Shown here: positions 27,155-53,604 of the stretch, piece after piece
How the letters are laid out: the number at the start of each line of letters is the position of its first letter
Position numbering within the stretch: the stretch's first letter is position 1
From: Sulfolobus sp. S-194
Lineage (GTDB): Archaea > Thermoproteota > Thermoprotei_A > Sulfolobales > Sulfolobaceae
Direction: 5' to 3'
DNA: 64,000 nt
Assembly (NCBI RefSeq): GCF_012222305.1
Contig: NZ_CP035730.1
Location: forward strand, 1,364,001-1,428,000
Translations under genes and position numbers: made by a program
The notes under the pieces: model-generated
Told to the model about the DNA's origin: nothing
The model's database searches: none
The model's input: the letters and a program-made list of their open reading frames with translations, nothing else

Positions 27155-27814
27155 ATGTTTCTAACGCCTAGGGAGCAAGAAAAACTACTTATTTCATGGG
27201 CAGCAGAAGTTGCAAGAAGGAGAAGAGCTAAAGGATTAAAGCTAAACTATACAGAAGCTATGGCAATTATAATAGATTATATTTTAGAAAAAGCTAGAGA
27301 AGGAGTTAAGATGGAAGATATAATTAAAGGTGCACAAGAATTATTAACTGAGAACGACGTTATGGAAGGTGTGCCAGAACTTCTTGACCTAGTTCAAGTA
27401 GAAGCAACATTTCCAGATGGCACTAAATTAGTTACAGTTAGAAATCCAGTAAAAAGTAGTAAAAAAACATTAAATACTTATGTAATTAAACAAGGGGAAA
27501 TAGAAGTTAATGGAGAAGAGATAGAATTAGAGGTAACTAATACTGGTGATAGACCTATCCAAGTAGGCTCGCATTTTCACTTTTTTGAAGTAAATAAGGC
27601 TCTAAAATTTGATAGAGAAAAAGCTTATGGAACGAGATTATCAATCCCTGCAGGAACAGCCGTAAGATTTGAGCCTGGGCAAACTAAAATTGTTAAGCTA
27701 AGAAAGATAGGAGGTGGAGGAAGGGTTACTGGATTAAATGGTTTAACAGAAGGTTCTCTAGAACATAATAAGGAAGAGGCTATTAAAAGAGCAAAGGAGA
27801 GGGGATTTGCTTGA
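27155..27814 (+). CDS. ureAB: Urease gamma-beta fusion subunit
   Basis: Residues 1-100 are urease gamma ([20 protein letters not shown], then [30 protein letters not shown]). Residues from about 120 are urease beta ([33 protein letters not shown], then [12 protein letters not shown]). Gamma and beta are fused in one 219-residue chain as in Helicobacter UreA, though the fusion also occurs in archaea. It forms the frame around the nickel subunit. The stop overlaps the ureC TTG start by 4 bp. The operon order is ureAB-C-E-F-G-D. Confidence 0.95.
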
Positions 27815-29484
27815 GAATAAGTAAGGAAAGATATTTTGAGCTATATGGACCAACTGAAGGAGACAAGGTTAGGCTAGGAGATACTAATCTTTACATAACG
27901 ATAGAAAAGGACTTAATTGCAAAAGGAGATGAACTGGTTTTCGGAGCCGGAAAAACTGCTAGAGATGGTTTAGGATTATTGCCAAACGTCAGAGAGGAGG
28001 AGGCGATGGATTTAATAATTACTAATGTAGTAATTCTTGACCCTTTATTAGGAGTTATAAAGGGAGATATTGGGATCAAAGATAATCTAATTATTGGGAT
28101 TGGTCATGGTGGTAATCCTTTTACAATGGATGGTGTAAATTTTATTTTAGGTTCTTCAACTGAAATTATTTCTGGAGAAGGGTTAATTGCAACGCCAGGT
28201 TTTATTGATACTCATATACATTGGGTTGCTCCACAGCAAGTTTTCGACGCTTTGTCGGCCGGATTTACAACACTAATTGGTGGTGGTACTGGACCAGCTG
28301 AAGGAACTAAGGCAACCACTGTAACTCCAGGAAGTTGGAATATTAAAATTATTGCTGAAGCACTTGATTATTTTCCATTAAACTTTGCATTAACAGCTAA
28401 AGGTTCGTCTAGTAGGATTACTATGGAAGAAGTATTAAGAAATGGTGCGTCTGGTTTTAAGATTCATGAAGATTGGGGGGCTATGCCTAGAGTAATAGAT
28501 GAAACTTTAACAGTTGCTGATGAATACGATGTTCAAGTAACAATACATACTGATACTTCAAATGAAAGTGGTTACTTAGAAGATACACTTAATGCCATTA
28601 ATGGTAGAACAATTCACGCTTATCACGTAGAAGGGGCAGGAGGAGGACATGCTCCAGATATTATTAAAATATGTGCAGAACCAAACGTTTTACCTTCATC
28701 AACAAATCCTACAAAGCCTTATACAATACATACTTATGAGGAGCATTTGGAAATGTTAATGGCTGTACACCATTTAAATCCAAAGGTCCCTGAAGATGTT
28801 GCTTATGCTGAATCGAGAATTAGGGAAGAGACAATGATGGCAGAGGATTACTTACACGATTTAGGAGCAATAAGCATGTTGTCCTCAGATTCCCAAGCTA
28901 TGGGAAGAGTTGGAGAAACCGGAATGAGAGCTTTTCAACTTGCACATAAAATGAAAGAACTAGGATTAACCCAACTAAGTGATAATGAAAGGGTACTAAG
29001 ATATTTAGCTAAAATAACAATTAATCCAGCAATAACCCATGGAATTTCTGATTACGTAGGCACTTTAGCACCAGGACATATTGCTGATATTGTACTATGG
29101 GATCCAAGATTCTTTCCAGTAAAGCCTTACATGATTATTAAAGCTGGTGCAATTGCTTGGGCATTAATGGGGGATACAAATGCTTCAATTGCTTACGCAC
29201 AACCAGTACTTTACAAACCAATGTTTGGATATTACTCTGCTAAAAGTGTTTCATTCTTCTTCTCTGCAATTGATGGAGTAAAGAACTTATCGAAGATTGT
29301 AAGAAGAAGAGTCTTACCAGTCAAAAATACTAGGCATCTAACTAAAAAGGACATGAAATATAATGATGTTTTGCCAAGGATTGAAGTTGATCCAGATACC
29401 TATGAAGTTAAAATTAATGGTATCGTGCCAAAAGTTCCTCCTTCAAAATCATTGCCGTTAACTCAATTATATTTTATGTATTAG
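27811..29484 (+). CDS. ureC: Urease alpha (catalytic nickel) subunit
   Basis: TTG start, 557 residues. Nickel ligands appear as THIHW (His135/137), GFKIHEDWG (carbamylated Lys217, His219), [10 protein letters not shown] (His246), [13 protein letters not shown] (His272) and SSDSQAMGR (Asp360). These are nearly the same numbers as in Klebsiella urease. The mobile flap reads MLMAVHHL: His320 is kept but the usual Cys319 is Val. The protein hydrolyses urea to ammonia and carbamate. Everything else needed for activity is present, so the enzyme should work, with altered flap chemistry. Confidence 0.95.
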
Positions 29485-29493
29485 GGTGGTATC

Positions 29494-29973
29494 ATGATTT
29501 TGACTAAAAAGTTGGGAAAAGAAAGTGAAACACTTGAGTTAATAGAGAAGGCTAAGACATTAGGAATTTTTAGAATAGTAGAGCTTTCTAGAGAATGTTT
29601 TGAGAGGCAAAGATGTAGAGGTAAGACTGATAAAGGAGAGGAAGTCATAATAAACTTGAAAGGCGTACCAATTTCTGACAGCGATGTTTTTCAAGCTGAT
29701 AATGGCTATATTATTCTGCTAAAAGAGAAAGAGGAGAAAGTTATAGAGTTCAATATAAATGATTTTACTTCTTTCGTTTTAGGTTATATTATAGGAAATT
29801 ATCACATGAGGGTTATGGTTAATGAAAACAAAGTTTACATACCAGCGGAATTAGGCGAAGATTATTTGACACAAAAATTTAAGAATTTTAATCCTAAAAT
29901 TACTAAAATAAAATTTAATCCAAATGTAGATATGCCAGTACAATCTGTGGTGGTTGATTTTGCTAACACCTAA
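29494..29973 (+). CDS. ureE: Urease nickel metallochaperone UreE
   Basis: The 159-residue protein has the UreE N-terminal beta domain and the metal-binding domain core FVLGYIIGNYHMRVMVNENKVYIPAE, where GNYH carries the conserved bridging histidine. The His-rich tail seen in some bacteria is missing; the C-terminus ends VVVDFANT. It delivers Ni2+ to UreG. It starts 9 bp after ureC and its 3' end overlaps ureF by 20 bp. Confidence 0.85.
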   Translation: MILTKKLGKESETLELIEKAKTLGIFRIVELSRECFERQRCRGKTDKGEEVIINLKGVPISDSDVFQADNGYIILLKEKEEKVIEFNINDFTSFVLGYIIGNYHMRVMVNENKVYIPAELGEDYLTQKFKNFNPKITKIKFNPNVDMPVQSVVVDFANT

Positions 29974-30556
29974 AATATTTCAATTATTTGATAGCGCATT
30001 ACCAGTAGGTTCCTTTAATTATTCTTTCGGTGTAGAAGAAGCTTATATGAAGGGATTTGAGATAAGGGGATTTATTAGAGACATTTTCTTTAATGTGATT
30101 ATGAAGGGAGATATTGCAATAATAGATTTAGCTTATGAAGACCCAGAAGAAGCTGATAAAATACTTTACGCATCAAAACTTCCCAAAGAATTAAAAGAAG
30201 CAAGCGTTAATATGGGTTTATCCTTAGCTAGGCTGGAACTTTGTGATGACTATTATATTAAAAAAGTTAATAATGGTGAAGGTATAGGAACTTATCCAGT
30301 TATTATAGCGAGATGCTGTAAATCTTTAGGAATTAGTAAAGAGGACTGTAAAGCCGGTTTGGCTTATACTGAACTATCCCAATTGGTTTTCAGCGCAGTA
30401 AGGCTAAGGGCTATAGATTTTATTGAAGGACAGAAAACCATTTGGTGTTTGCTTTCTCAATATAAGGAGGAGAAGGAGTTTGAACCATTCAGTCCAGTTC
30501 TTGATATTTTATCAAAACTTCATGAAGAAAGAGAACCTAGGGTGTTTCTCGCATGA
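29954..30556 (+). CDS. ureF: Urease accessory protein UreF
   Basis: A 200-residue, helical protein opening with the UreF signature [23 protein letters not shown]. Later segments [20 protein letters not shown] match the family's C-terminal part. UreF bridges UreD-bound apo-urease and the UreG GTPase. I take the TTG at 29954, inside ureE; other TTG codons a few bases on (29960) would serve equally. Stop overlaps the ureG ATG by 4 bp. Confidence 0.85.
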
Positions 30557-31182
30557 TTAGAATTGGAGTTTTAGGTCCAGTTGGTAGTGGTAAAACAACA
30601 TTAATAGAATTCTTAGCAGAATACCTAGTAAGGAAAGAAGGACTTTCAGTGGGAATAATAACTAACGATGTTGTGTCCTCTCATGACGCTCTAAGAATTT
30701 ATCAGAATTTAGTGTTAAAAGAAAAGTTATTACCAAAAGAAAATGTAATAGGAATTGTAACAGGAGGTTGTCCACATACGGCAATAAGAGAAGATCCTTC
30801 AGTAAATTTAAGAGCATTAGAAACTTTAATAAAGAGAACAAGTTTAGATGTTATATTTATAGAAAGTGGAGGAGATAATGTTATGTCGACATTTAGCCCA
30901 GTGTTGGCTGACTATACAATCTTCGTATTAGATACAGCAGCTGGCGATAAATATCCTGGAAAAGGAGGGTTAGGGATTCAAGAAAGTGATTTACTTGTTG
31001 TGAACAAAATAGATTTAGCACCTTTTGTAGGAGCTGATTTAGAGAAAATGAGAAGAGATGCAGAAAAAATAAGGAAGGATAAACCTACAGTCTTTATTAG
31101 TTTAAAGACAGGAGATGGAATAGACGATTTAATTAAAATTATAAGAAGTGAATTAGAACTTGAGGGGCTTATTAGAAGTTAA
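30553..31182 (+). CDS. ureG: Urease accessory GTPase UreG
   Basis: SIMIBI-class GTPase of 209 residues: P-loop GPVGSGKT (8-15), the invariant nickel site [11 protein letters not shown], switch region [13 protein letters not shown] and base-recognition NKIDLA. It couples GTP hydrolysis to insertion of nickel into urease. The N-terminal His-rich stretch of plant/bacterial forms is absent. Its 3' end overlaps ureD by 23 bp. Confidence 0.95.
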
Positions 31183-31759
31183 AAAAGGTTTGATAAAAAG
31201 AAACGGTCCTCTATCTTTTTTTGAATCTCAAGGTTTTGGAATATTAGTTAATCCTTCTGAGGTTTTAGCTAACAATGATGAAGTGGAAATTTACATAGAA
31301 AGAGATAGGGGCATAATTACTGACCAAGCATATACAAAAATATTATCTAGAAGTAATGTAAGAATGCACATTAAAATAATCGCTAATGTATTATATTATT
31401 TTCCTCATCCTATAATTTTTTACAATAAAGCTAATGCAAAAATTGAAACAGAGATTTACATAAATGACTTTGGAAAGATTGTTGAGGCATATATTTTAGG
31501 TAGAAAGTTTCACAATGAGGAATTTAAAGAAGGAGATATAAAGAGCATTACGAAAGTATACTATAAGGAGAAACTATTAATTTATGATATTTTTAGAGTT
31601 AAAAATGAAGATTATAAGAGTAAAAATATCATGGGTAGTGAGGCCTTACTTACAGTTTTAGATATAAAAAATAGTGGAGAATACGATTTCAAAAGATTAA
31701 TAACTTCTTCAGAAAAAATTGACAGCTTATGGAGAGAGGAAACTAAAATTTGGTTTTAA
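31160..31759 (+). CDS. ureD: Urease accessory protein UreD (short form)
   Basis: This beta-rich 199-residue protein is identified mostly by place, as the last gene of the ure operon. It also has segments such as [17 protein letters not shown] (matching UreD's 'Q-x-T-K' region), [24 protein letters not shown] and [14 protein letters not shown]. UreD normally has about 270 residues, so this is a compact version. The start is a TTG inside ureG. It scaffolds the UreFG complex on apo-urease. It ends 3 bp from the convergent cyanase gene. Confidence 0.8.
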
Positions 31760-32246: not shown

Positions 32247-32697
32247 TTAAAAGATAATTATATTTGACGATTCTTTAATTATTTTAGCAACAACTTATGT
32301 AGAAGTCCTTTCAATCTCTGGAATACTCATAACTCTTTCTAAGAATTTTCCATGAACTCCTCTCTGGTTTTATATCTAGACATTACGATAAAATCATACC
32401 CACCTAAAACAAAATACACTCCCCAAACTCCTAGTATTTGTGCTAACTTATTACCTAACTCCACGTGATAATTTTTACCATACTTAGCTTTTACCGAAGT
32501 TATTACCATGTAATCAAGGTTTAATGAAGCTGGATTAATATATGCATAATAACCCTTAATCACACCATCTTTTTCCAACTTCTTAATCCTATATGCTAAG
32601 ATAGACTTGGGAATCTGATTTCCCTAGCCGTCTCATCTAAAGAATATTTTACATTATTTTAAAGAATTTTTAAAATTCTTAAGTCTATCTCATCCAT
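32247..32697 (-). pseudogene. Broken Lrp/AsnC-family regulator
   Basis: From ATG at 32697 the frame reads MDEIDLRILKIL and then a stop; it continues as NNVKYSLDETAREI, shifts, and resumes as RIKKLEKDGVIKGYYAYINP, the classic Lrp helix-turn-helix end and linker. The RAM ligand-binding domain follows (VITSVKAKYGKN, then VYFVLGGYDFIVMSRYKTREEFM), with another frameshift near 32340 and an in-frame stop near 32300. At least four lesions. The MITE at 32713 sits 15 bp before the start codon, in what was the promoter. It probably once regulated neighbouring nitrogen genes. Confidence 0.75.
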
Positions 32698-37406: not shown

Positions 37407-37758
37407 ATCGATTACTTAACTTTAATGAACAAATTATAAACATTGCTCTTATCAGTAGTTAAAAAAGTATAATATTTAATATGTCCTTACTAATAAATTT
37501 TTAATTTTTACTAATTCCATTAATATTTGTATTTACTTAATAAATACAATTTAGTTGTAACTTAAATCTTTATATCATAGTTTTATCTAATATTATTATT
37601 TAAATTTTTAATATATTAAATTTTATTTCAATTAAAGTAGATTTATTAGGCCTTAACTTTAATCCTCAATTTTAATAATGTTAAATTTCTAGTAATCCTC
37701 AATGTTTTCAATTTTTAAGGTTTTTAAATTAAAAGTTATTTTAGTTTTTTGGCTACAA
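37407..37758. other. Long AT-rich divergent promoter region
   Basis: About 350 bases between fmdA and the divergent NCS1 permease with no supported gene. It is extremely AT-rich with many T runs. Both gene promoters must lie here; only the one for the permease can be pinned to a TATA box (next entry). Confidence 0.4.
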
Positions 37759-37768
37759 CTTTATATAT
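37759..37768 (+). promoter_or_regulatory. TATA box of the NCS1 permease
   Basis: CTTTATATAT lies 33-42 bases before the ATG at 37801. With the usual 25-base spacing this gives a leader of about ten bases, typical of Sulfolobales, and argues for the shorter protein start. Confidence 0.5.
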
Positions 37769-37800
37769 TGATAAAAAGTAGTAGACAAAGAGAGATACGT

Positions 37801-39447
37801 ATGGTAGAAAGAAAGGAAAAAAATAGTATAAGTAATAAAAGAAAATATAATAAACTAGTTTCTACTCCAGAAATAGAGGATTATTCTCTGCGATATGCCC
37901 CTAAAAAATTTAGAAAATGGAAAGAATTTACAGTAGCTAATGCTGCTATGGGTGGAATAGCTTATCTAGCAGATTTTGCTATAGGGGGCTCATTAATAGT
38001 GTCTTACGGATTTGCTAATGCTACTTTAGGTATTTTAATAGCAGCAGTAATAATATTTCTAACAGGAATACCGATAGCTTATTACGCTTCAAAATATCAT
38101 ATTGACATGGACTTATTAACAAGAGGAAGTGGTTTTGGATATTTGGGTTCAACAATAACATCTATAATCTATGCATCCTTCACCTTTATTTATTTTTCTC
38201 TTGAAGGATCTGTTATGTCACAAGCAATAAGCTTATATTCTGGCATACCATTAAGAATATCCTATTTAATAGCCGCCTTAATTATGATCCCTCTAGTAGT
38301 ATATGGAATGACATTCTTATCCAAATTACAATTGTATACGCAACCATTATGGTTTAGTTTAATGCTCGTTCCTTTGATAGGGATATATATAAAAGATCCA
38401 ACTAGCTTATCTACGTGGACTTCTTTCGGAGGCGAAGCTAAGACAGCTTCCTTTAATCCATTATTTACAGGACTAGCAGCGGGTGTAGTATTATCTTTAA
38501 TAGCGCAAATAGGCGAACAAGTAGATTATCTGCGATTTATGCCCGATAAAGAACCATCTAATTCAAAGAAATGGTGGTTATTTGTAATATTAGCTGGACC
38601 TGGCTGGGTAATACTAGGTGCATTTAAGGAATTATATGGTTCATTCCTTGCTGCGAATATAGCATCTAAAGTAGGATACGTGGATGCTACAGAACCAATC
38701 TATCAATTTCTATTTGGTTACAATATAATACTAGGTTCTGCCTTTGCTGCACTAACAATAGCAACAATATATGTACTATTATCTCAAATCAAGATTAATG
38801 TAACAAATGCTTATTCAGGATCATTATCATGGTCTAATTTCTTCTCTAGAATACTTCATATCCATCCTGGTCGTGTTATATGGTTAGTACTAAATGTTTT
38901 GATTGGCCTAACTCTGATGGAACTAGGTGTATTTTATGAATTAAACTTCGTTCTTGGTTTCTATTCTAATGTAGCAATAGCTTGGATAGGTGCTGTAGTA
39001 TCTGATTTAGTAATAAATAAAAATATCTTAAAAATATCTCCACCCTATATTGAGTTTAAGAGAGGACATCTTTATAAGATAAACCCAGTTGGATTTGTAC
39101 CTATGATAATCGCATCAATAATATCGATCATGGCATTTTTTGGGTTATTTGGTTATGCAGCTCAATCATTTTCTCCATTCATATCATTAGCTATATCGTT
39201 TATGTTAACACCGATAATGGCAGTACTAACTAAAGGTAAATATTATATAGCAAGAACATCTAATATACAAAAAACAGAAGATACATGTGTTGTCTGTGGG
39301 TACAACTACGAGAGTGAGGATCTTTTGTATTGTCCATATCATCAAGGAAATATTTGTTCATTATGTTGCACATTAGATAAGTCATGCCATGAAATATGCA
39401 AAACTAAAATTGGTCCTCAAAACAATGACTTCAGATTAAAAATTTAA
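37801..39447 (+). CDS. NCS1-family nucleobase/allantoin permease with C-terminal Cys-rich domain
   Basis: From ATG 37801 the protein has 548 residues. The frame could extend to 37702, but a TATA box lies inside that extension. About 12 spans follow the NCS1 pattern, with ANAAMGGIAYLADFAIGG in span 1, GFGYLGSTITSIIYASFTFIYF and NVTNAYSGSLSWSNFF. The last 45 residues form a separate cysteine cluster: CVVCGYNY, YCPYHQGNICSLCCTLD, CHEICK, about nine Cys and two His, probably zinc-binding on the cytoplasmic side. It imports purine/pyrimidine-like bases, allantoin or hydantoins by cation symport. Placed between formamidase and a Rieske oxygenase. Confidence 0.8.
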   Translation: MVERKEKNSISNKRKYNKLVSTPEIEDYSLRYAPKKFRKWKEFTVANAAMGGIAYLADFAIGGSLIVSYGFANATLGILIAAVIIFLTGIPIAYYASKYHIDMDLLTRGSGFGYLGSTITSIIYASFTFIYFSLEGSVMSQAISLYSGIPLRISYLIAALIMIPLVVYGMTFLSKLQLYTQPLWFSLMLVPLIGIYIKDPTSLSTWTSFGGEAKTASFNPLFTGLAAGVVLSLIAQIGEQVDYLRFMPDKEPSNSKKWWLFVILAGPGWVILGAFKELYGSFLAANIASKVGYVDATEPIYQFLFGYNIILGSAFAALTIATIYVLLSQIKINVTNAYSGSLSWSNFFSRILHIHPGRVIWLVLNVLIGLTLMELGVFYELNFVLGFYSNVAIAWIGAVVSDLVINKNILKISPPYIEFKRGHLYKINPVGFVPMIIASIISIMAFFGLFGYAAQSFSPFISLAISFMLTPIMAVLTKGKYYIARTSNIQKTEDTCVVCGYNYESEDLLYCPYHQGNICSLCCTLDKSCHEICKTKIGPQNNDFRLKI

Positions 39448-39690: not shown

Positions 39691-39868
39691 CAATTAGTAT
39701 TTATTTGGAAATCGTTATATTTAACAATTATAAGGTTTAATAAAAAATCTATATTACAAAACCATATTATTTCATTGTAGAGATTTTACGTAAAATGCTA
39801 ATTGTATTTTTACACTTCAAGATTGTTAGAGACTTCACATGTGAAGCCTTGCATTTATATTTAATAGA

Positions 39869-39961
39869 GAGCTTTCAGATAAGAAAAAGCCGAATTTAAT
39901 AGGGATTATTAAATATGCTATAGATCCGTATAATATCCTTAACCCTGGAAAACTACTCTAA
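39869..39961 (+). pseudogene. C-terminal stub of an FAD-linked oxidase
   Basis: Thirty codons end in IIKYAIDPYNILNPGKLL then stop, the invariant C-terminus of the FAD-oxidase C-terminal domain in glycolate oxidase and D-lactate dehydrogenase-type proteins (D-P-x-x-I-L-N-P-G-K). Nothing of the gene remains upstream, where the IS1 fragment sits; it was probably deleted with IS activity. Confidence 0.65.
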
Positions 39962-39993: not shown

Positions 39994-40932
39994 ATGTATA
40001 ATGAATGGTTGCCAGTCGCTTTTTCAGATGAGGTTAAGGATATATATGAAACAAACGTATTAGGACACGATATAGTTATAATTAGAAAAAATGGAAAGCT
40101 TTATGGATTAAGTAATAGATGTCCTCATAGGTTAGCTAAGTTATCTAAAGGAAAAATTATTGAAGATGAAATTCAATGCCCATATCACGGTTGGAGATTT
40201 AATTTAGAAGGAAAATTAACTATTGTGCCTTCATTGAGTAAAAAGATAAATGTAAATTTAAGAAAATACTACGTAAAGGAAAAATATGGTATTATTTGGA
40301 TATCTGTTGATGAACCAAAAGATGATTTACCAGAAATTAAAGAGTGGGAAAGTTTCAGAAAAATTAAATGTGGTCCTTACTATATAAACGCAAATCCTTT
40401 TAGAGTATTAGAAAATTTATTTGATGTATCTCACTTCCCCTATGTTCATGAAAATTACTTAGGGAACCCTGAATATCCTTATATACCAGAATATAATGTT
40501 GAAATTACTGATGAAGAGATTGTAGCAAAAAATATCCAAGTTTATCAACCCAATCCAGACGGAAGTCATATCGGAAGGTATGAGACCTATACTTACATTG
40601 TATATAGACCATTATTCTTGTATTTTACAAAAAATGATGAGAATAAAAGAACATTTTCTATGATTTTTACGATTAAACCAGAAAGTAAGAATAAAAGTGT
40701 AATCTTTGCATGGATTTTCGTGAACTACGGTTATGAAACAAATGAAGATGTAATTAGAAATTTTGAAGACACAATAATTATGCAAGATAAAGAGGTTTTA
40801 GAAACACAACCAGATATATATTACCTTGATTTATCAAGGGAAATTCATGTTAAAGCAGATAAGCTATCAATATTTTACAGACATTATCTAAAAAAGAGAA
40901 TTGGAAAGTTTCCAGCGTTGGGTTTACTATGA
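39994..40932 (+). CDS. Rieske non-haem iron oxygenase (oxygenase component)
   Basis: The 312-residue protein carries the Rieske cluster in CPHRLAKL (Cys43, His45) and CPYHGWRF (Cys62, His65), and the mononuclear iron site N-x2-D-x2-H-x4-H in LENLFDVSHFPYVHEN (Asn141, Asp144, His147, His152). It resembles the vanillate demethylase/HpxD branch. It needs an external reductase, not present here. Its stop overlaps the ATG of a cyclic amidohydrolase (ATGATAA), so the pair acted together, most likely oxidising a heterocycle or amide-containing ring before hydrolysis. Substrate unknown. Confidence 0.85.
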   Translation: MYNEWLPVAFSDEVKDIYETNVLGHDIVIIRKNGKLYGLSNRCPHRLAKLSKGKIIEDEIQCPYHGWRFNLEGKLTIVPSLSKKINVNLRKYYVKEKYGIIWISVDEPKDDLPEIKEWESFRKIKCGPYYINANPFRVLENLFDVSHFPYVHENYLGNPEYPYIPEYNVEITDEEIVAKNIQVYQPNPDGSHIGRYETYTYIVYRPLFLYFTKNDENKRTFSMIFTIKPESKNKSVIFAWIFVNYGYETNEDVIRNFEDTIIMQDKEVLETQPDIYYLDLSREIHVKADKLSIFYRHYLKKRIGKFPALGLL

Positions 40933-41140
40933 TAATAAAAAATGTGAGAATAATAACAAAGAAAGGAATTACGGAAGCTGAAGTTAAAATAGAAGAAGAA
41001 AGGATTGTTAAAATTAGTAAAGATATTCAGACTAATGAAAAAGTTTTAGATGGAGAGAGTAAACTCCTTTTTGCTGGGAGAGTTGATAATCACGTCCATA
41101 TTTATAAAAAGTATTTAAAAGGTTCAAAACATCTGATACG
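40929..41140 (+). pseudogene. 5' fragment of a hydantoinase/allantoinase-type amidohydrolase
   Basis: The first 70 codons give MIIKNVRIITKKGITEAEV, EERIVKISKDI and the metal-binding RVDNHVHIYKK, the usual start of cyclic amidohydrolases. The frame then runs into the insertion sequence at 41141 and ends within it. No further part of this copy is seen on the far side of the IS, so an adjacent deletion removed the rest. The start is translationally coupled to the Rieske gene. Confidence 0.75.
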
Positions 41141-41854
41141 TGTGTGTCCAACAATTTTTGTTTTTCGTATAATATTTTATAGGGCGATGAGGTGGTAATA
41201 CTAGGGGTAAAACATGAACAAGAGATTTAGCCAACTCATCGCCCTTATGATAAGTTATGTTTTTTCATCTTTAAACCTTTCACCACGTTTTTATACCTAG
41301 GGATGAGGTTACTAGGGATTTAGCAGCTTATTATTTAGGTCTTTCACTGAGGAGGGTTGAGGCCATCTTCCACGTGTCTAACTGTCCATTACTATTAGAG
41401 GAGGTTGGCTGATTACACTTCTCCTCCTCTCAGCGGTTATTACACTGTTGACGAAACTGGTATTAGGGTAGTCCACGCTGTGCTTTACTGGTTGTGAGTT
41501 TTAAGGGATATGAACACGGGGAAAGTAGTAGCAGTGAGGCTATCAGAAACTAGGAGCGGATTAGACGTTATACTACTCTTCGTGGGATTAAGTTGAGGAA
41601 ACAAGGGAGATACCCCACGACGGCAGGCCGTAGTATAACATAATTTCAATACTAGGTGTTAATCACAAACACATCACATTCTAGAGGAGGAATTTAATTG
41701 AACAAAGTGTTTAGGAGTTTAAAACTGAGGCTGGTAAGCATGGACAAACGCTTCCCACATAATGCGAGCAAAGCTTCAATAACAAGGTGGGTAAAGGTGT
41801 TCTTCACCTTATACGACCTCTTACAATAACGTAAATGAAATTGTTGGACACACA
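41141..41854 (+). mobile_element. Decayed 714-bp IS with TGTGTGTCCAACAATTT ends
   Basis: Perfect 17-bp terminal inverted repeats TGTGTGTCCAACAATTT bound the element. Inside, a plus-strand transposase can be read in pieces: DLAAYYLGLSLRRVEAIFHV, then YYTVDETGIRVVHAVLYWL, then LRDMNTGKVVAVRLSETRSG with a DDE-type V-D-E-T start, then stops. Size and layout suggest an IS6-type Sulfolobus element (like ISC774), but I am not sure of the family. No target duplication is visible. The same ends bound the 184-bp element at 100-283. Confidence 0.75.
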
Positions 41855-41966
41855 TTTGCTAGTTCTATTTGCCTTTCTATGTTATCCTTTTTATCCCAAG
41901 TCATTTAGGTTTGAATAATGACAAATCGCATTAAAATATAATCATAAAATAAAGTAAATAAATTAT

Positions 41967-43168: not shown

Positions 43169-44764
43169 TTATTCTGGTGGTATTAACTTGAAGGCTAAAT
43201 TTATATCAATACCTTGACGAAGTCTATATTCCTTTGATTCAAAATAAAATACTAAACCTACAACTGGTATTAACCCTATGACTAAGTAATCGATAATTAG
43301 ATTACCAATCACCATTGATGCGTACAAGCTATTCACACTAGCATACCAAATCGAGAAGAACACTGAAATAGCTAAAACTATAGATGCTAGGGAACCATAA
43401 ATTAGAAACTCTATCTTGTCCTTCTTACTTAATTCCTCACCTGGTATTCCCTTAATTCCTGCAACAATAGCTGAAACGGTAGCTAACAAGAATTGATATA
43501 AGAATAGTATACCTATAAGGACTATTGTTGAAACTATAAAGATTCCGTTTATAGTAACATATTCAAAGATTAATGCTAATGCCAATACAAATATTGAACT
43601 TATTAAAGGTGTCTTTAGCTTTAGATTTACATAAGCAAACTTCTCTGGAATTAATCTGTCAAAAGACATAGCTAAAAGAACTCTACTTGGAATTGCTAAA
43701 GATAACGGACCAGCTACGAATTGTATACCTAAATTTAATATTGCAACAAGAAACGCTAAAATGGGACTACTTAATGCTAGTACTCCACCCCAGGCTATAA
43801 ATCCAGAAGAAGCTTGAAGCGGTATTGAACTGCCCCAACCATTTAATGAAACATAATTAAAGAATGGTATACCCATTGAATATTCTGTTCCAATGACAAG
43901 TCCGAGTATTATTGCAGAAGCTATAATATATCCGCTTAACATTCCCATTTTTATTGATCTCCCGGGGACTTTATATTCACCAGCAAAATAGGATGGAGCA
44001 AAGAACCATACGAATAACCACATAACCATCAGTATCATCCAAATTAATGTTTGCAATGGATTTACAATAGGGGAATAGTAAGAGAGACCTTGAGAGTATA
44101 GAGAAGAGTAAGTAGGGCCAGAGAACTCATCATACAAAGAATTGAAAGCTGGAGCAAAAGCTTTAGGTCCTTCAAGTAATAATGCTACTATTAAGATTCC
44201 TCCTATTACTTGAAGCGAAGCAATTATAAACAAGAAATTCGACATATATCTCGGTGGTAAGATACTAATTACCCAGAATAGGATAAGAGAAATGAATGAA
44301 GCTATTTCGAAAGTAGTTGGGTTTACTAACATATTAGTACCTAAATTAAGTAGTAGTGAATTATGAAGGGCTAAACTAATTACTTGAAATGCTGGAGCAA
44401 TACCAGCAGATATCTCTATTTGGGATAAAATCGCAGCCAATAAAGGTGTTGAAAATATATTGGCAACTGCTTGGATACCACCTAATGCTGGGTTTAAGAT
44501 TCTAGTTATATAAATATACTCACCAGATGATCTAGGAATGTGCTCAGCTAATTTTAGATATGTTAAAAATATTGGTAAAGCTACTATAGAGGCTAATATT
44601 ATACCTAAAGTCCAGTTTGCACCAGGCAATGCTGGAGAGTAAACCATTGTGTAATAAACAGATATTGGAACAATCATTGCTAAAACTTTTGCAAATGCAT
44701 GCCTACTGCTCATTTGCCTAACTAGACCAGATGATTCCCTAATGAATATTTTCTTTTCAGCCAT
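43169..44764 (-). CDS. APC-superfamily amino-acid permease
   Basis: A 531-residue, 12-span transporter with the local family's signatures: N-terminal KKIFIRESSGLVRQMSS and C-terminal RLRQGIDINLAFKLIPPE. Span 1 region shows MIVPISVYYTMVYSPALPG. Insertion of the IS next door occurred exactly at the stop codon; because the target was duplicated, the coding sequence survives. The gene is preceded by a short AT-rich promoter region and is not obviously part of an operon. Substrate unknown, presumably an amino acid or peptide-derived amine. Confidence 0.8.
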   Translation of the reverse strand: MAEKKIFIRESSGLVRQMSSRHAFAKVLAMIVPISVYYTMVYSPALPGANWTLGIILASIVALPIFLTYLKLAEHIPRSSGEYIYITRILNPALGGIQAVANIFSTPLLAAILSQIEISAGIAPAFQVISLALHNSLLLNLGTNMLVNPTTFEIASFISLILFWVISILPPRYMSNFLFIIASLQVIGGILIVALLLEGPKAFAPAFNSLYDEFSGPTYSSLYSQGLSYYSPIVNPLQTLIWMILMVMWLFVWFFAPSYFAGEYKVPGRSIKMGMLSGYIIASAIILGLVIGTEYSMGIPFFNYVSLNGWGSSIPLQASSGFIAWGGVLALSSPILAFLVAILNLGIQFVAGPLSLAIPSRVLLAMSFDRLIPEKFAYVNLKLKTPLISSIFVLALALIFEYVTINGIFIVSTIVLIGILFLYQFLLATVSAIVAGIKGIPGEELSKKDKIEFLIYGSLASIVLAISVFFSIWYASVNSLYASMVIGNLIIDYLVIGLIPVVGLVFYFESKEYRLRQGIDINLAFKLIPPE

Positions 44765-45295: not shown

Positions 45296-46222
45296 TTAAC
45301 CTCTACCCAATATTACACTCTTTACTTCAAACTTCTTTATGTATGCCCTTCCAAAACCTTTAGACTCTTTCTTAATTACTATTAGTGCATAATTTAATAT
45401 TCCATCTTTATAATTACTTCCCGGATTTACAACCATTGTATTCCTAATTTTATCAATGTTAGAAGATTCATGAATATGCCCATGTAATCCTAATAAGGGT
45501 TGATACTTTTCAATCAGCTCTCTAACTGTTTGCGATCCCACATGAATATTCTTACTATTCATATTTGCAATATCTAGCTTAGTATTATAAGGTGGTGCAT
45601 GGAAATTAAATATTGCAAATTCTGGGTTTTCCAATTTTGTTATCTTATCCATTAGCTTATTATACAGTGTTGACTCTGGTAATTCCCTATAAGTATTCCA
45701 AGGGGTCGGGTTTACGTAACCGCTACTTATCATAATTAGATCATTAATTTCAATAAGTTCATTTTCAGCAACCTTTATCCCATACCTTTCTAAATAAGAG
45801 TCTACTTCTAATGGATCATCATTACCTGTATTCCAAATTGTTTTAAATTTAGTATTCTTAGTTTTTTCCTCAAATATCTTGATCCAAGAGTCTATTTGAC
45901 CTTGAATAAAGTCTAAGATTTTCTCTCTCCTAAACTGCTGATTAGAATGAAATTCATCTAGCTCGTCTTTCGATTCGAAAAATAAAGGAGCTAAACCAGA
46001 GTTTTTATACGCTTTTTCGATTTCATCGAGAGAAACTTCTTTTTCGCCTAAATATATAGAATTGCCATTCTTTAAATATAATGCAAAATCCTTAGATACT
46101 AGATCTCCACCAAGAATAAGGTAATCTACAGAAAACATTTTGGCAGCATTCAAAGCCTTTCTAAATACTACCTCAGAACCATGAATATCAGAGACGAACA
46201 ATATTTTTGTTTCATTTCCCAT
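45296..46222 (-). CDS. Metallophosphoesterase (calcineurin-like), paralogue B
   Basis: The 308-residue enzyme has the two-metal site: FVSDIHGSE, ILGGDLVSKD, NTGNDDPLEV, FNFHAPPYNT and GLHGHIHES, with NPGSNYKDG closing the barrel. It is a paralogue of 25837-26814, sharing the special block [18 protein letters not shown] and an HVGSQTVRE loop that other phosphoesterases lack. Substrate unknown. It is followed within 1 bp by the 154-residue protein. Confidence 0.8.
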   Translation of the reverse strand: MGNETKILFVSDIHGSEVVFRKALNAAKMFSVDYLILGGDLVSKDFALYLKNGNSIYLGEKEVSLDEIEKAYKNSGLAPLFFESKDELDEFHSNQQFRREKILDFIQGQIDSWIKIFEEKTKNTKFKTIWNTGNDDPLEVDSYLERYGIKVAENELIEINDLIMISSGYVNPTPWNTYRELPESTLYNKLMDKITKLENPEFAIFNFHAPPYNTKLDIANMNSKNIHVGSQTVRELIEKYQPLLGLHGHIHESSNIDKIRNTMVVNPGSNYKDGILNYALIVIKKESKGFGRAYIKKFEVKSVILGRG

Positions 46223-46320: not shown

Positions 46321-47381
46321 TTATAATGAATTATTTAAGTTATCCCTATATAATTCTCTTATTAAATCTACTGGATTTAAATCTAATATTTTCATTTCTA
46401 CAGTAGATTTAGCAACAATTTTCTCCCTCCTAAAAACCAGGTGTCTTGTCATCATTGGGAATAAAAGTTCTTTAACATCTTTCAAATCAACTAAGATATA
46501 ATCTTCGTTTTTATTTCCAAATTCTTTTTCTGAATTCGTAGTTATTAAATCTAACCATGAAATATCAAATGTTTTTTCTATATTCATTAGAAGCCATAAG
46601 ACTTGAAGCATGTCACCTACACCAGCTGGATAAAACGGGTTTTGTATATCATCATGACCTAAGCAAACATTTATATTCTCTTTTAGTAATTTTTTACTCT
46701 TGTGACCCCTCTAAACATCGGATAAGAATTACCACCATTAAGATAGAAGGCTGTTAACGGTGAGCTAATTACACTTATATTCTTTTCCTTAATCATTCTT
46801 ATTAACTTTTTAGCATAATTTTCAGAATAAAAATGTAAAGCAGTTAAATGACTTAAGGCTAAATGAGTTTTAGCAACTTTCAGCATATACTCACTATGTT
46901 TGGTTCTCTCATCATACTGATCAATATGAACATCTATAGGCTTTTGAAGCTTGTATGCCAATTCAGCTATAAAATCCATATGAAGGTAAGGGTCTTTATC
47001 AGCCTCAGGCTTTCCTCCAATTATATCAACCATTGAAGAATATCTTACAAAATCTTCTTTTGAACAATTAAATATACCTTGCTCGGGAAATGATACAATT
47101 TGGAAATCAATGTGTTCTTTCAATTCATCTTTTGCTAAAATAGCTGCTTTTAAACTATTTTTAGAACAAGTATCTGCATGGACTCTTATGTGAGTTGTAC
47201 CATAAAATAGTTCTATTAAAGCTGCTTTCTCAATTCTTTTCTTTATCTCTTCAACTGTCATCTTATCTCTTATTTTGCTCCATATTTCTACAGCTTCTTC
47301 TAAACTTTTAGCACCTTCATTACCAATGAAAGCATTTTCTAAATGAGAATGCATATCGTAAAAATCTGGTATTTTTATCAA
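46321..47381 (-). pseudogene. Cytosine-deaminase-like amidohydrolase with one frameshift
   Basis: The first frame (47381-46683, 232 residues) starts DFYDMHSHLENAF (H-x-H metal motif) and continues IRVHADTCSKN, DVHIDQYDERTKHSEY and LALSHLTALHF. It ends falsely as VTRVKNY. Adding one A to the A-run near 46692 continues the gene as KKLLKENINVCLGHDDIQNPF, with the conserved G-H-D-D loop, down to 46321. So a single-base loss in a homopolymer kills the gene, or the run is slipped through, or is a sequencing error. It is 6 bp downstream of the xanthine-dehydrogenase-type gene. Confidence 0.75.
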
Positions 47382-49131
47382 TATTACACCCTCTTCATAG
47401 GTATTTCACAAACTGGAATAAAGTCTGAAATTGCGTTTGTAATAGATGCATAAGCACCGGAAATGCTGTTTTCTCCAACTCCTCTGAATCCGCCTGGAGT
47501 ACTTGAAGGTGTATTAAGTAACTCTACTTTAACTTTAGGAGCCTCTTTCGCTGTTGGTATTAGATAATTATAAGGTTCATTAATATTCTCGTAAAGAACT
47601 CCACCTAATGCTTGTATTATTCCTCCAATTACTTGTCCTTTGACCTTATCCTCATCTGCAGGAACTCCTATATCAATAATTATATAATTCTCTCTTAGGT
47701 AGAAATTTGTACCGTTATACTCAACTACACTTATTTGAGCACTTATTGCACCTATTGATTCTTCTGGCTCATAACATTTTATTGAGTATAGCTCTTTTTC
47801 TTCTAATTCTCAGGGTGAATTATTTAATTTTTCTAAAACCCTTTTTATCCCACCAAGTTTATCGATCTTCTCTTTTAACTCCCTAGCAGCTAAAAGAGTA
47901 GCGTTTCCAGCAGTAATTACACTCCTACTGGCCCAACTACCAAAACCATTAACATCTTGTGAACCACTATAAACAACTATTCTTTCATAATCTAATTCTC
48001 TCTTCACTATTTCTCTTAAAACATCGCTTATTCCTTGACCCATATCAACTATAGTAGTTTTAACCTCAACTATGCCATTACTAGTTAACCTTAATGAGAC
48101 ACACTCATATCCACCAACAAATGATTTTTCCTCGCTTATTAAAACTTTAGATGTAGGCGAGGCGTAATGAACGTAAAGTGAAACTCCTATACCAACCTTA
48201 TATTTATTTTTATATTCATTATATTTCTCCCTTAATCTCTCTAAAACCTTTTTTACATCTCCTATATCATTAGTGATTTTCCCTAAATTCCTCTCTCTAA
48301 TACTAATAGGGTCAATTTTTATCCTTCTGCTAACTTCATCTATAATTCGTTCTATAACAAATAACGCTTCTGGTCTACCAAAACCTCTGAAAGCTCCTTG
48401 TGGCGGATTATTAGAGGCAACGACTTTTACGTTAGTTTTTATTTTTATATCATACACATTCTTTAAATTCATTAAGTGTAACATATAAGGGTGAAATACC
48501 AGACCATGGTAAAGGAAAAGCACCCATATCATAAGTTATGTTATCTGTAATTCCCGTTATTTTTCCATTGCCGTTATAATAAACAGTCACATCATGCTGT
48601 TGACCCCTGCCTTGTGATGTCATAATATGTTCTGACTTTCTTTCAATCCACTTTAAGTTTTCCCCTGTCACATAAGATAAAGCTATTACGGCTAATTCTT
48701 CCATTACAATATCTTGTTTAGCACCAAAACCCCCACCTACTCTAGGTACTTTAATTTCAATTTTTTCCTCAGATAAATCCAGCATAGTTGAGACTATTTT
48801 TCCAACAACTGTTGGTGCTTGTGTTGAAATTCTTATTATTAGTCTTCCATCCTCATGAGTTGCAATTACACCTCTTCCTTCTAAAGGAGCCGGGGATTGT
48901 CTATTAAATGTAAGCTTTAACGAGAAAGAATTTTCACCAAATTCATAATCTCCTTGAGAAAACGTATGTACTACATTATCTGGTTCATAAATCGGACCAG
49001 TTAAATCTTCATACTCTACTTCAACTCCCTCTTTTTTATCTTCGGCATCATACTCGTCTTCTCCTATAACCATTCCTAACGGTTGACCAATATATAATGC
49101 TCTATCTTTTGCTAAAAGTGGTATTTCTATT

Positions 49132-50259
49132 AGCACTTGTCGGAAAATCCGTGCAGACCAAGGAGACCTTGAAAACTTTTTAAAATTAACCCGGATGAAA
49201 TATGCATGGATAAAAACTCAGAAAAACAAGCGTATTACAAAGCGTTGGAGAACGCAATAATCATAACACTTACCCCACTAGCGGGCTTAAGAAAAAGCAC
49301 AGCAGCAAAACTAATACTAGGGGGAGTAATAGGTTGCACAGCATCAGAAATAGCACAAGAAATAAACATGGACTATGAGACAACACTAAAAAACTTGGAC
49401 AAGATAGCAAACACTAGCTTAATAAAAGCAGTAAAGGAAATAGTAAAAGACCACCCGGTACAACTAATAGTAGACGACACACACGACCACAAAGAATACG
49501 CGAGAGCGATACCAGTATCGAGAAACTGCACACAAGTATACTACTGCAGAGAACACAAGAGATACGAGCCGGCAATACAACTACTAATAATAGTATTAAA
49601 GGACTTGAGAACAAACGAATCATACATAGTAGCAATAACACCCTACATACCGCAAAAGGTTGCGGAAATACTTAAGGAAAGGGGTGAAGAGGCAGAGTTC
49701 AAGACAAAAATCCAGTTATACCTAGAGTTACTACCGATACTCTTAAGTGAGTTCAATGTTGTTATTATCTCCTTCGACTCTTGGTATGTTAATTCTAATA
49801 CTGTGGGGGAACTCAAGTCCAACGCGCGGGTCAACGAGGGTGGTAGATCCGTGCCCGTTGGCGAGTTCCCCCAAGGGGAATACCTAGTTGAGTATCTAGG
49901 TGTTCCCATAAAGTTACTTGTAGTAGATGATTATAAGGGTTTGGGTAAGAGGTACTTCTTCTCTACTAATGTAAATGATACTTCAGAGGACATAATAACT
50001 TCATGGGAGAGTCGTTGTTGGGGTTTTGATTAGGGAGTTAAAGGCGTTGGGGTTGGATAAGGGTTCTTTCCTCACTTGGGTTAGGAATAAGGGTTTCATA
50101 ACCCTTAAAGCCCTCTCCCTCCTCTTCGTTCTCTTATTCAAATACTCCCTTGGTTTACACCTCGGTGCCAAGAGAATTGCTAGATTGATAAAAACTGTTT
50201 ATCAAGAATCTGGAGGGATAAAGAAATTGTTTAAGTGGAGGAGAAAAACATAAACTGCT
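49132..50259. mobile_element. Damaged ISC1217-type insertion sequence inside the XDH gene
   Basis: Ends AGCACTTGTCGG and, reverse complement of the right end, AGCAGTTTATG resemble the ends of the element at 41967-43163. Target duplication is imperfect: on the minus strand AGATAGAAT and AATAGAAAT share ATAGAA, so the copies have drifted. About 1128 bp long. Plus-strand transposase is frameshifted. It is older than the 42-kb copy and only moderately related to it. Confidence 0.75.
49206..50253 (+). pseudogene. Frameshifted DDE transposase
   Basis: The first frame (49206-50033) carries LIVDDTHDHKEYARAIPVS (first Asp) and VVIISFDSWYVNSNTVGELK (second Asp) and stops after WESRCWGFD. The second frame (from about 50026) continues as IRELKALGLDKGSFL, FITLKALSLLFVLLFK and LFKWRRKT, the normal C-terminus. 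The Glu helix lies exactly at the break near 50010-50030, so the enzyme is inactive unless frameshifted. Confidence 0.75.
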
Positions 50260-50528
50260 ATTCTATCTCTTTTAACTTTCCCTCATTATCAAAGATTTTT
50301 GGAATAGTGAAATTTATATCCTTCCACGTATAGACCTTTCCCCTAATACTAAATTTAGCATAAGGCTTATTTGATCTTATAAAACTTACTACTTTATATT
50401 TACCCCTAATATCATCTACGTAATAATATAGCATTAAATAAAATAAAGAGTATTGTTATTATATCTTTTTCTTATCTTAACTAAATAATTTCTTACAAAA
50501 GAAAAAAGAAGGAATTTACTTAATTAAG

Positions 50529-52046
<1,518 letters not shown>

Positions 52047-52159
52047 AATAGAAAATATTTTAGAGTGATTTAAATAGATTTATGTTCATTATATAAATTC
52101 TATAATCAGATAAAAAATAATGTTCATATTATTACATTAAGATACACTTTATATGATAT

Positions 52160-53414
52160 TTAAAAATGCTAGAGTGATAATGCCTATAAGGAATTATTGA
52201 AACAGATTTTAAGGTTGAAGAAGGAAAATTAAGAAGGATATAGTAGGTGAAGGAAAAGACTTGACTGGTTATTATGCATTGCCTAGTGTAATTAATGGAC
52301 ATACGCATTTTAACTCAAGATATTTGGGGGCTAAAGAAATAATTCCCACAGTAGATGATTATAAAAGTGGTAGCGAAATGGCAATAGCTGGCGGAATAAC
52401 TTCTATAATAAACTTCATTATCTTTAAATAGAGAAGAATAGAGGCAGTTAAAGATGAGATAAAAAAGCTAAAAGTACTACTGGAATTAATTATTCCTTTC
52501 ATTTAATTATTAAAAAGAAAAAAGATCAAATTAACTATTTACCAGAAGTTATTAAAATGAGTGTAAAGAGCATAAAAATGTTTATGGCATATAAAGAAAG
52601 CATGCAAGTTGATGATGAAACAATGTATCTTGCAATGAAGAAAGCTAAAGAGTTAAGTGTGACTGTTGCAATACACGCTGAGAACGGTGATGTTATAGAA
52701 GTCTTACATAATGAGTACAAAGATAAGAAGGAAGCAATATAGCACTTACAAGACCAGTTGAAGTTGAGGAAGAAGCTGTTAATAGGGCTTCTATGTTAGC
52801 TTATTTAACTGGTGTTAAAGCCTATATTGCGCTCATTTCTTCTCTTACATCCCTAATATCTTAATGGAAAAAGAAAGGAGCTAAAATTTTTGGCGAGACT
52901 TGCCCACATTACCTTATTATTTAATGATAGTTATTATTTAAGATCAGATGAAAATAAATTTATAATGTCACCTCCATTGAGAAGAAAAGAATTAAGAGAA
53001 GAACTTGTAAGAAAACTTCATATGGTAAATACTTCAAGAAGTGATTACTCTGGTTTTATGTCTGTTATAAGGATAAGGCACTAAGTTACATTGAAGTTCC
53101 AAATGGTTTATTTTCAACAGAATTTTTAGTCCCTAGAATTATGTCTTTTCTTTTTGACAACTTAATAACACCAGAAAAAGTTTTGCTAAAATAACTTCTT
53201 ATAACCGGATAAAACTTTATAACTTAAAGGAAAAGGATTCTATGAAGGAAAAGATGCCGATTTTACAGTTATAAAGAGAGAAGAATGGATTGTAAAAGAT
53301 TTGCACGGTAAGATGGATTACTCGATTTACGAGGGTGCAAAATTCAAAGCAAAAGTTACTCAAACCTACTTGAGAGGCGAATTAACCTTTGATGAGGATT
53401 ATAAAGGTAAATAA
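52160..53414 (+). pseudogene. Shattered hydantoinase/dihydropyrimidinase/allantoinase gene
   Basis: Pieces in several frames line up as a cyclic amidohydrolase: TGYYALPSVINGHTHFNS (metal H-x-H), SGSEMAIAGGITSIINF, MSVKSIKMFMAYKES, VTVAIHAENGDVIEVL, then ALTRPVEVEEEAVNRA, the C-P-H region, KFIMSPPLRRKELREE, FLVPRIMSFLFDN and a C-terminal YEGKDADFTVIKREEWI with KVTQTYLRGEL. More than six frameshifts or stops. It is a second, more decayed relative of the fragment at 40929. Together with the dead XDH and cytosine-deaminase-like genes it marks a lost heterocycle-degradation set. Confidence 0.75.
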
Positions 53415-53604
53415 GGAAAAGTATTGGAAAGATGAACATTGTAGTTTTTTATAATGATAGTTTTTGATGTTAAAATAAAATCTATTCAGTAGGTTATAGC
53501 TATCTATGAATACTTCTTAATTTGATGGTTTAATTTAATGGAAATTAGTTATAAGAATTTTTCTAAGATATATTATGATGATAATTAGGTCGTTATTTAT
53601 CGTA

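What the first reader, a model, noticed from the sequence alone, without database searches (positions are those of the whole stretch)
39994..41140. Rieske oxygenase translationally coupled to a cyclic amidohydrolase, beside NCS1 permease
The Rieske gene stop overlaps the hydantoinase-type start (ATGATAA). HpxD-type Rieske enzymes oxidise purines in bacterial hpx clusters, and with XDH-type, allantoinase-type, formamidase and urease genes nearby this resembles an oxygen-dependent purine breakdown route. It would be a new combination in archaea. The amidohydrolase is now cut off by an IS.
Basis: partly seen in the sequence, partly recalled or inferred. Interest (0 to 1): 0.55.

Follow-up and report, generated by a model that had tools for sequence, protein, structure and literature searches.

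The report
Decayed archaeal ring-opening catabolic gene island
The gene pair is the remnant of a conserved set of genes in hot-spring archaea that probably oxidises and then opens a nitrogen-containing ring, perhaps purine-like, for use as nitrogen; relatives keep it intact, but here most of its enzyme genes except the oxygenase are broken.

Summary
The Rieske gene (39994-40932), the ATGA overlap and the truncated cyclic amidohydrolase are real. The neighbouring "NCS1 permease" is not recognised as NCS1 and is not part of the island. Five related genomes hold an intact Rieske - amidohydrolase (HyuA_a) - GlcD1 series inside a conserved Sulfolobaceae island: XDH large subunit, a second HyuA, CodA-like hydrolases, a CN hydrolase, permeases. 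Here six other island enzyme genes and the AsnC regulator are truncated, frameshifted or deleted, so the window holds a relic whose oxygenase is still open. The Rieske protein is not an HpxD orthologue (AU p = 0.018); the reductase domain PF00175 was not detected in any island genome, nor OHCU decarboxylase in 31 Sulfolobaceae genomes, so the canonical urate/allantoin route is unlikely. A purine-like substrate is still favoured: sister Rieske genes lie near PnrA-type or xanthine transporters in four lineages, and the best-characterised relatives are SxtT and NdmA. Best reading: an oxygen-dependent hydroxylate-then-hydrolyse module for an N-heterocycle. The substrate is unproven; residue changes in HyuA_a, CodAa and CodAb argue against hydantoin and cytosine.

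The parts
39994..40932 (+). Rieske non-heme iron oxygenase, 312 aa, open; Rieske CxH/CxxH and DxxHxxxxH iron-site motifs kept
   Evidence: pairwise dN/dS 0.20-0.22 against G131 and G078
40929..41140 (+). N-terminal remnant (about 64-70 codons) of cyclic amidohydrolase HyuA_a; its ATG overlaps the Rieske stop (ATGA)
   Evidence: intact 413 aa in L016, L070, L071
41141..41854 (.). 714-bp insertion sequence with 17-bp terminal inverted repeats, sitting in place of the rest of HyuA_a, all of GlcD1 and most of the CN hydrolase
   Evidence: gene order of G131
41855..41931 (-). first 26 codons of the CN hydrolase (N-carbamoyl amidase-like), the other side of the deletion
39851..39958 (+). C-terminal remnant (36 aa, 50% identity) of GlcD2-like FAD oxidase upstream of the Rieske gene
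   Evidence: intact GlcD2 directly upstream in G130
43169..44764 (-). AA_permease_2 family permease (perm2), open, 63% identical to the island permease of G114
45296..46222 (-). metallophosphoesterase MPE2, open; at the same place in G078, G130 and G131
46324..47387 (-). CodA-like amidohydrolase CodAa, frameshifted
47387..50434 (-). XDH-type molybdopterin large subunit, cut by an insertion (about 49131-50260) and frameshifted
50529..52046 (-). permease perm4, open
52153..53432 (+). second cyclic amidohydrolase HyuA_b, frameshifted; 58-70% identical to G131, lower than the other broken genes (81-98%), so an older decay or another origin
32250..32697 (-). AsnC/Lrp-type regulator of the island, in three frame-shifted pieces
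27155..31759 (+). urease cluster, close to the island in the window, G078, G114 and G090 (association only; not in the fetched stretches of G130 and G131)

Best explanation
The pair is the remnant of a Sulfolobaceae island that degrades an N-heterocycle. Shown: gene content, linkage in relatives, motifs, and decay in this genome. Inferred mechanism: the Rieske enzyme, fed by a ferredoxin and not by an HpxE-type reductase, uses O2 to hydroxylate a carbon beside a ring nitrogen of a purine- or imidazolone-like compound. This makes a cyclic amide (lactam) that the co-translated HyuA_a opens by hydrolysis. GlcD1, next in line, oxidises the resulting hydroxy-acid, and the CN hydrolase and CodA-like enzymes release ammonia and CO2. 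A parallel module in the same island, XDH large subunit - HyuA_b - CodAa, follows the same hydroxylate-then-hydrolyse logic with a molybdenum hydroxylase. In this genome an IS-associated deletion, an insertion and frameshifts have disabled the other catabolic enzyme genes of the island; two permeases and a metallophosphoesterase stay open. The route is therefore dead here and presumably alive in relatives.
For: Pair adjacent in 5 of 6 genomes holding both intact. HyuA_a and GlcD1 orthologues occur in exactly the same 9 of 31 genomes, and the Rieske orthologue (>=52% identity) in 6 of those 9 and in no other genome but the window's, where the partners are lost (Fisher p 1.4e-4 over the 30 other genomes, not corrected for kinship). 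XDH_L - HyuA_b - CodAa lie together, with the CN hydrolase divergent, in G011, G066, G096, G114 and G090. Catalytic metal ligands kept in the Rieske, HyuA and CodA-like proteins aligned. Purine-like substrate: best PDB relatives SxtT/SxtDIOX (4e-40) and NdmA (2e-25); sister Rieske genes next to PnrA/BMP ABC transporter genes (archaeal G015, Leptolyngbya), near one with an ORF between and divergent (Paraburkholderia), or 24 bp after a PbuX-like xanthine permease (Niallia).
Against: Substrate not shown. Other members of the same Rieske clade lack an adjacent purine gene as far as seen: Pantoea, Rhodococcus (downstream side cut), G412, and Mycetohabitans, where a 'purine nucleoside permease' is annotated but 7 kb away; for the G050 and g6 copies only five neighbours were scanned. 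In G011 the pair is split between contigs, and g6 has HyuA_a and GlcD1 without the Rieske orthologue. HyuA_a differs at hydantoinase Tyr155 and Asn336, CodAa and CodAb at Glu217 (recalled numbering), though CodAc keeps the Glu, so the real chemistry may differ. No small or medium XDH subunit was seen among the 20 island proteins scanned.
Confidence: 0.5

Rival explanations
1. The Rieske enzyme is an HpxD-type, molybdenum-independent xanthine hydroxylase that feeds urate into an allantoin route.
For: Same broad superclade: shared C-terminal motif (E-h-x3-D-x-x-s-x-x-YR) with HpxD and Ndm proteins; purine context of HpxD relatives.
Against: Separate HpxD clade 97/99 and p-AU 0.018; 28% identity to HpxD against 31-36% to the bacterial members of its own clade; PF00175 not detected in island genomes; OHCU decarboxylase in 0 of 31 genomes.
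Confidence: 0.07
2. The island acts on a non-purine ring such as a hydantoin, imidazolone, creatinine-like or oxidised pyrimidine compound.
For: HyuA, CodA-like and N-carbamoyl amidase-like hydrolases are the classes used for such rings; formamidase in the g7 islands.
Against: Sister Rieske genes lie near purine-type transporters; a separate PreA - dihydropyrimidinase - CN hydrolase set already covers reductive pyrimidine breakdown in G130, with like sets in G011 and parts in g6.
Confidence: 0.28
3. The Rieske enzyme is a VanA/DdmC-like demethylase of aromatic compounds, and its linkage to HyuA_a is incidental.
For: VanA_C Pfam domain at 1e-19; AU test does not reject joining the Sulfolobaceae rows to two VanA-like rows, p 0.351.
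Against: The ML tree puts it in another starred clade; the C-terminal YR motif is absent from the two VanA-like rows; DdmC scores far below SxtT and NdmA; conserved linkage to ring hydrolases.
Confidence: 0.1
4. The Rieske enzyme N-demethylates methylated purines or other N-methyl heterocycles, as NdmA and NdmB do.
For: NdmA and NdmB among the best PDB hits; purine-type transporters near sister genes.
Against: Ndm proteins form a separate 100/100 clade and joining is rejected, p-AU 0.006; PF00175 reductase domain not detected in island genomes.
Confidence: 0.1

Closest known systems
hpx system of Klebsiella (hpxDE, hpxO, hpxR, uraH, uraD; seen in L108)
   Same: Rieske oxygenase within a heterocycle nitrogen-scavenging cluster; distant homology (28%) and shared C-terminal motif
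   Different: Rieske not orthologous; no PF00175 reductase and no OHCU decarboxylase detected; ring presumably opened by HyuA-type hydrolases instead
SxtT/SxtDIOX and NdmA/NdmB Rieske monooxygenases (PDB 6wn3, 6wnc, 6ick, 6icl)
   Same: closest solved relatives by sequence (4e-40 and 2e-25); same iron-site motifs in the Ndm rows
   Different: no ring-hydrolase neighbour is known for them to me (recalled); joining with Ndm rejected by AU test; SxtT was not put in the tree
E. coli yge-ssnA-xdhD uric acid cluster (recalled; a paper passage on ygeW-ssnA seen)
   Same: XDH-type enzyme, hydantoinase-type and deaminase-type amidohydrolases together (recalled)
   Different: no Rieske, no CN hydrolase, no GlcD enzymes there (recalled); used without oxygen (recalled)
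Reductive pyrimidine pathway (PreA, dihydropyrimidinase, ureidopropionase)
   Same: cyclic amidohydrolase plus CN hydrolase chemistry
   Different: separate gene set in G130 (enzymes scanned) and G011 (permease scanned as PF02133), distinct from this island

Membership tests
Rieske non-heme iron oxygenase, alpha subunit | CxH...CxxH [2Fe-2S] motif and 2-His/1-carboxylate iron site | tested here: met
   CPH...CPYH, DVSHFPYVH and QDKEVLE present and aligned with NdmA/HpxD; role of each residue recalled
HpxD | groups with HpxD proteins in a tree | tested here: not met
   HpxD clade 97/99 excludes it; p-AU 0.018
HpxD | HpxE-type FNR reductase partner | tested here: not met
   PF00175 found in 1 of 31 genomes, G119, which has no Rieske or HyuA_a match; 10 of 14 controls ring. 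PF00175 does hit the reductase beside the Paraburkholderia Rieske gene; HpxE itself was not scanned
HpxD / urate-allantoin route | OHCU decarboxylase downstream of urate | tested here: not met
   PF09349 in 0 of 31 genomes; 4 of 14 controls ring; uricase and HIU hydrolase not searched
HpxD | hydroxylates (hypo)xanthine | not testable with these tools
   no assay
VanA-type O-demethylase | VanA_C domain | tested here: met
   71.6 bits, cut-off 23.5; a broad family
VanA-type O-demethylase | groups with VanA-like rows | tested here: inconclusive
   ML tree separates them, AU p 0.351, long branches, only two such rows
D-hydantoinase / dihydropyrimidinase (HyuA_a) | binuclear metal ligands and carboxylated Lys | tested here: met
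   HxH, Lys, His, His, Asp kept in 9 of 9 orthologues aligned
D-hydantoinase / dihydropyrimidinase (HyuA_a) | substrate residues Tyr155 and Asn336 (recalled numbering), curated NCBIfam score | tested here: not met
   both columns differ in 9 of 9, though a Tyr lies one residue beyond the Tyr155 column; 237 bits against cut-off 393 for the G114 copy
Cytosine deaminase (CodAa, CodAb) | catalytic Glu217 (role recalled) | tested here: not met
   Gln in 8 of 8 CodAa; Tyr or Phe in 5 of 5 CodAb aligned; metal ligands kept; CodAc keeps Glu in 7 of 7
NCS1 permease (window 37702-39447) | PF02133 match | tested here: not met
   no hit at E<=1, while a g7 protein scores 1e-56

The most novel reading that the evidence does not exclude
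An oxygen-dependent purine (or imidazolone) breakdown route in Sulfolobaceae that bypasses urate and allantoin: a Rieske oxygenase and a lone molybdenum hydroxylase each prime a ring for its own dedicated cyclic amidohydrolase.
Probability: 0.3. Interest if true: 0.65.

Novelty: new variant of a known kind. Interest (0 to 1): 0.42.

Why it matters
Archaeal breakdown of purines and related rings is, to my knowledge, poorly mapped. An intact island in relatives, one of them probably S. tokodaii, makes a defined set of about eight genes testable. If a Rieske oxygenase primes a ring for a co-translated cyclic amidohydrolase, this would be an oxygen-dependent ring-opening route that does without urate oxidation. 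The window also shows how such an island decays, with an IS at the site of a deletion, leaving an orphan oxygenase that an annotator could misread as a functional aromatic dioxygenase.

Tried and rejected
HpxD orthology: rejected by tree, AU test, undetected reductase domain and undetected OHCU decarboxylase. NCS1 permease as a partner: rejected. Aromatic ring dioxygenase of the PF00848 type: the window protein is not hit by that model, whose only match in this genome is another gene at 258 kb. The search for related loci in genome contigs gave one weak bacterial locus and was not pursued. Paper searches on purine breakdown in Sulfolobus, HpxD, archaeal Rieske oxygenases, Sulfolobus hydantoinase, Sulfurisphaera purine clusters and a Rieske-hydantoinase link: no title or abstract start listed pointed to this island (two searches listed 20 of 24 and 12 of 19 papers); the library lacks most subscription journals. 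I saw passages of PMC7373994 and PMC4016543, and of the others only search listings.

The tree holds 43 rows. Not used as rows: split Ndm-like genes (L090, L112), the G032 pseudogene, L014, L015, L111, and second Rieske genes in L087 and L091. The first script returned empty or tiny proteins for six loci lying on the minus strand; these were re-read. SxtT/SxtDIOX were left out of the tree by choice (saxitoxin-tailoring enzymes), so their place rests on phmmer scores alone. G412, Paraburkholderia largidicola and Variovorax rows carry over-long N-termini from the first-start rule; columns filled under 50% were removed. The motif check used 37 of the 43 rows: six long-branch rows were left out. 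Groups for the AU tests were fixed after the tree had been seen.

Full report
OBSERVATION. The window lies in a single-contig genome of 2.79 Mb. ORF 39994-40932 encodes 312 aa with Rieske and VanA_C domains. Its TGA overlaps the ATG of the next frame (ATGA, 40929-40932). That frame, read from its second codon, matches N-termini of allantoinase/hydantoinase-type enzymes and codons 1-64 of a 413-aa gene of G131 at 89%. Homology stops at an IS of 714 bp with 17-bp inverted ends (41141-41854). On the far side lie the first 26 codons of a CN hydrolase (down from 41931), so, by the gene order of G131, the rest of HyuA_a, all of GlcD1 and most of the CN hydrolase are gone. Upstream, 39851-39958 is the C-terminus of a GlcD-like oxidase.

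WHAT THE INTACT LOCUS LOOKS LIKE. In G078, G131 and G130 the order is Rieske - HyuA_a - GlcD1, facing the CN hydrolase, then permease, metallophosphoesterase, CodAa, XDH large subunit, permease and HyuA_b; G130 also has an intact GlcD2 directly upstream. In G114 and G090 (genus g7) the order is Rieske - HyuA_a - GlcD1 - CodAb, CN hydrolase, XDH_L - HyuA_b - CodAa, AsnC regulator, with formamidase, GlcD2, DUF1177 and permeases beside it, and the urease cluster close by. G011 (g2) has most genes, but HyuA_a lies on another contig. G066 and G096 (g6) have XDH_L - HyuA_b - CodAa with the CN hydrolase, and all three g6 genomes have XDH_L, GlcD1 and HyuA_a, without the orthologous Rieske gene.

CO-OCCURRENCE. 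Of 31 Sulfolobaceae genomes searched, Rieske orthologues at >=52% identity occur in 7 (four g1, two g7, one g2), HyuA_a at >=63% in 9, GlcD1 at >=52% in the same 9, XDH_L in 11 including the broken window copy, and CodAb at >=60% in 7. Six more genomes have weaker Rieske matches (26-47% identity; one is a pseudogene, G032). Without the window's own genome, Rieske orthologue against HyuA_a gives Fisher p 1.4e-4 and GlcD1 against HyuA_a 7e-8; these are not corrected for shared ancestry and rest on four genera. In a phylum-wide sample of 398 genomes the Rieske protein is rare: 13 genomes with a match at E<=1e-20.

DECAY IN THE WINDOW. Compared with G131, XDH_L is cut by an insertion and a frameshift (one search also reports a TGA inside), CodAa and HyuA_b are frameshifted, the CN hydrolase keeps 26 codons, and against G078 AsnC is in three pieces. 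GlcD1 is not found in the genome at E<=1e-60, and no HyuA_a match reaches E<=1e-30. HyuA_b is 58-70% identical to G131 where the other broken genes are 81-98%, so its decay may be older or its origin different. The Rieske gene is still constrained: pairwise dN/dS is 0.20-0.22 against G131 and G078, compared with 0.13 between those two and 0.07-0.12 for UreC, perm2 and MPE2; against G130 synonymous sites are saturated. That fits mild relaxation after a recent loss.

RIESKE PHYLOGENY AND CONTEXT. By phmmer the best solved relatives are SxtT/SxtDIOX (141 and 139 bits) and NdmA (93 bits); DdmC gets 51. In a 43-row tree the Sulfolobaceae rows lie in a 20-row clade (98/93) with Niallia, Mycetohabitans, Pantoea, Rhodococcus, Paraburkholderia, Leptolyngbya and other archaeal sequences; HpxD rows form another clade (97/99) and Ndm rows a third (100/100). 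Holding the Sulfolobaceae rows together with HpxD or with Ndm is rejected (p-AU 0.018 and 0.006); with two VanA-like rows it is not (0.351). The groups were fixed after the tree was seen. Neighbours within the 20-row clade: BMP/PnrA-type ABC transporter genes directly beside the Rieske gene in archaeal G015 (L020) and Leptolyngbya, and divergent with one ORF between in Paraburkholderia; a PbuX-like xanthine permease (370 bits, cut-off 414) ending 24 bp before the Niallia gene. No adjacent purine gene was seen for Pantoea, Rhodococcus (downstream side cut), G412, or Mycetohabitans, where a purine nucleoside permease is annotated 7 kb away. For the G050 and g6 copies five neighbours were scanned, none purine-related. 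Outside the clade, HpxD-like rows sit in an hpx cluster or beside guaD and hpt or hpxO, while others show no such neighbour. The record's feature name for HpxD is molybdenum cofactor-independent xanthine hydroxylase, and hpxDE are described as oxidising hypoxanthine and xanthine (PMC7373994, passages read).

ENZYME DETAILS. The HyuA_a and HyuA_b rows aligned keep the metal-binding residues and the carboxylated lysine, but HyuA_a differs at the columns of hydantoinase Tyr155 and Asn336 in 9 of 9 (numbers recalled; a Tyr lies one residue beyond the first). CodAa has Gln (8 of 8) and CodAb Tyr or Phe (5 of 5) in place of E. coli CodA Glu217, while metal ligands and Asp313 are kept; CodAc keeps the Glu in 7 of 7. 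XDH_L shows GGGFGAK, AFRGFG and GVGE motifs in sequence in G078 (motif meaning recalled), but no small or medium subunit was seen among the 20 island proteins scanned. PF00175 was not detected in any island genome, so the electron donor of the Rieske enzyme is probably something else, for example a ferredoxin or sulredoxin (inference). OHCU decarboxylase was not detected in 31 of 31 genomes; uricase was not searched. A separate PreA - dihydropyrimidinase - CN hydrolase set is found in G130, and a like set with a PF02133 permease in G011.

MECHANISM. The island contains two parallel modules, each with a hydroxylase and its own cyclic amidohydrolase: XDH_L with HyuA_b, and Rieske with HyuA_a. 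Hydroxylation next to a ring nitrogen produces a cyclic amide, which is what a cyclic amidohydrolase opens; a GlcD-type enzyme next in line could oxidise a hydroxy-acid product, and the CN hydrolase and CodA-like enzymes could release nitrogen. This is inference from enzyme classes and gene order. A purine- or imidazolone-like substrate is my first choice on the transporter context; hydantoin, creatinine-like or pyrimidine-derived rings are the main alternative (the two readings overlap at imidazolone). In this genome the route is dead.

VERDICT. Observation largely right, permease label wrong, HpxD and the urate-type purine route not supported, purine-like substrate plausible but unproven. 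The finding is a relic of a new variant of known N-heterocycle catabolism, and the intact relatives, not the window, are the place to test it.

Noticed in passing
window 33126-39447: Block with aliphatic amidase (PRK13286 above cut-off), formamidase family protein and a 581-aa permease without family hits; not in the fetched stretches of the three same-genus genomes. Looks like an acquired amide-utilisation cassette.
   Followed up: partly
window 20134-25820: Nitrite/sulfite reductase-like ORF (48% to a g7 protein with NIR_SIR domains) and a molybdopterin oxidoreductase resembling formate dehydrogenase / assimilatory nitrate reductase; no counterpart in the fetched 60 kb of G078.
   Followed up: no
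window 31763-32209: Cyanate lyase next to the urease cluster, conserved in G078 and present in the same 60-kb region of G090.
   Followed up: no
window 49206-50253 and 41982-43076: Two related insertion elements (ORFs of 275 and 364 aa grouped by BLASTP), one inside the XDH large subunit gene, one beside the island deletion.
   Followed up: no
L012 (G032:C1:1617502-1617855): A Rieske pseudogene with three stops inside in another Sulfolobaceae genus, perhaps a second loss.
   Followed up: no
L074 7076-11920 (G130): PreA-like dihydropyrimidine dehydrogenase and dihydropyrimidinase, both above their curated cut-offs, a CN hydrolase and an unscanned 462-aa transporter-like ORF: a probable reductive pyrimidine pathway in Sulfolobaceae.
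   Followed up: partly
L026 367-2860 (G114): Unexplained conserved trio of ORFs (143, 266 and 437 aa) beside the island in both g7 genomes; by eye the 266-aa one looks transglutaminase-like and the 437-aa one ATP-grasp-like (not scanned).
   Followed up: no
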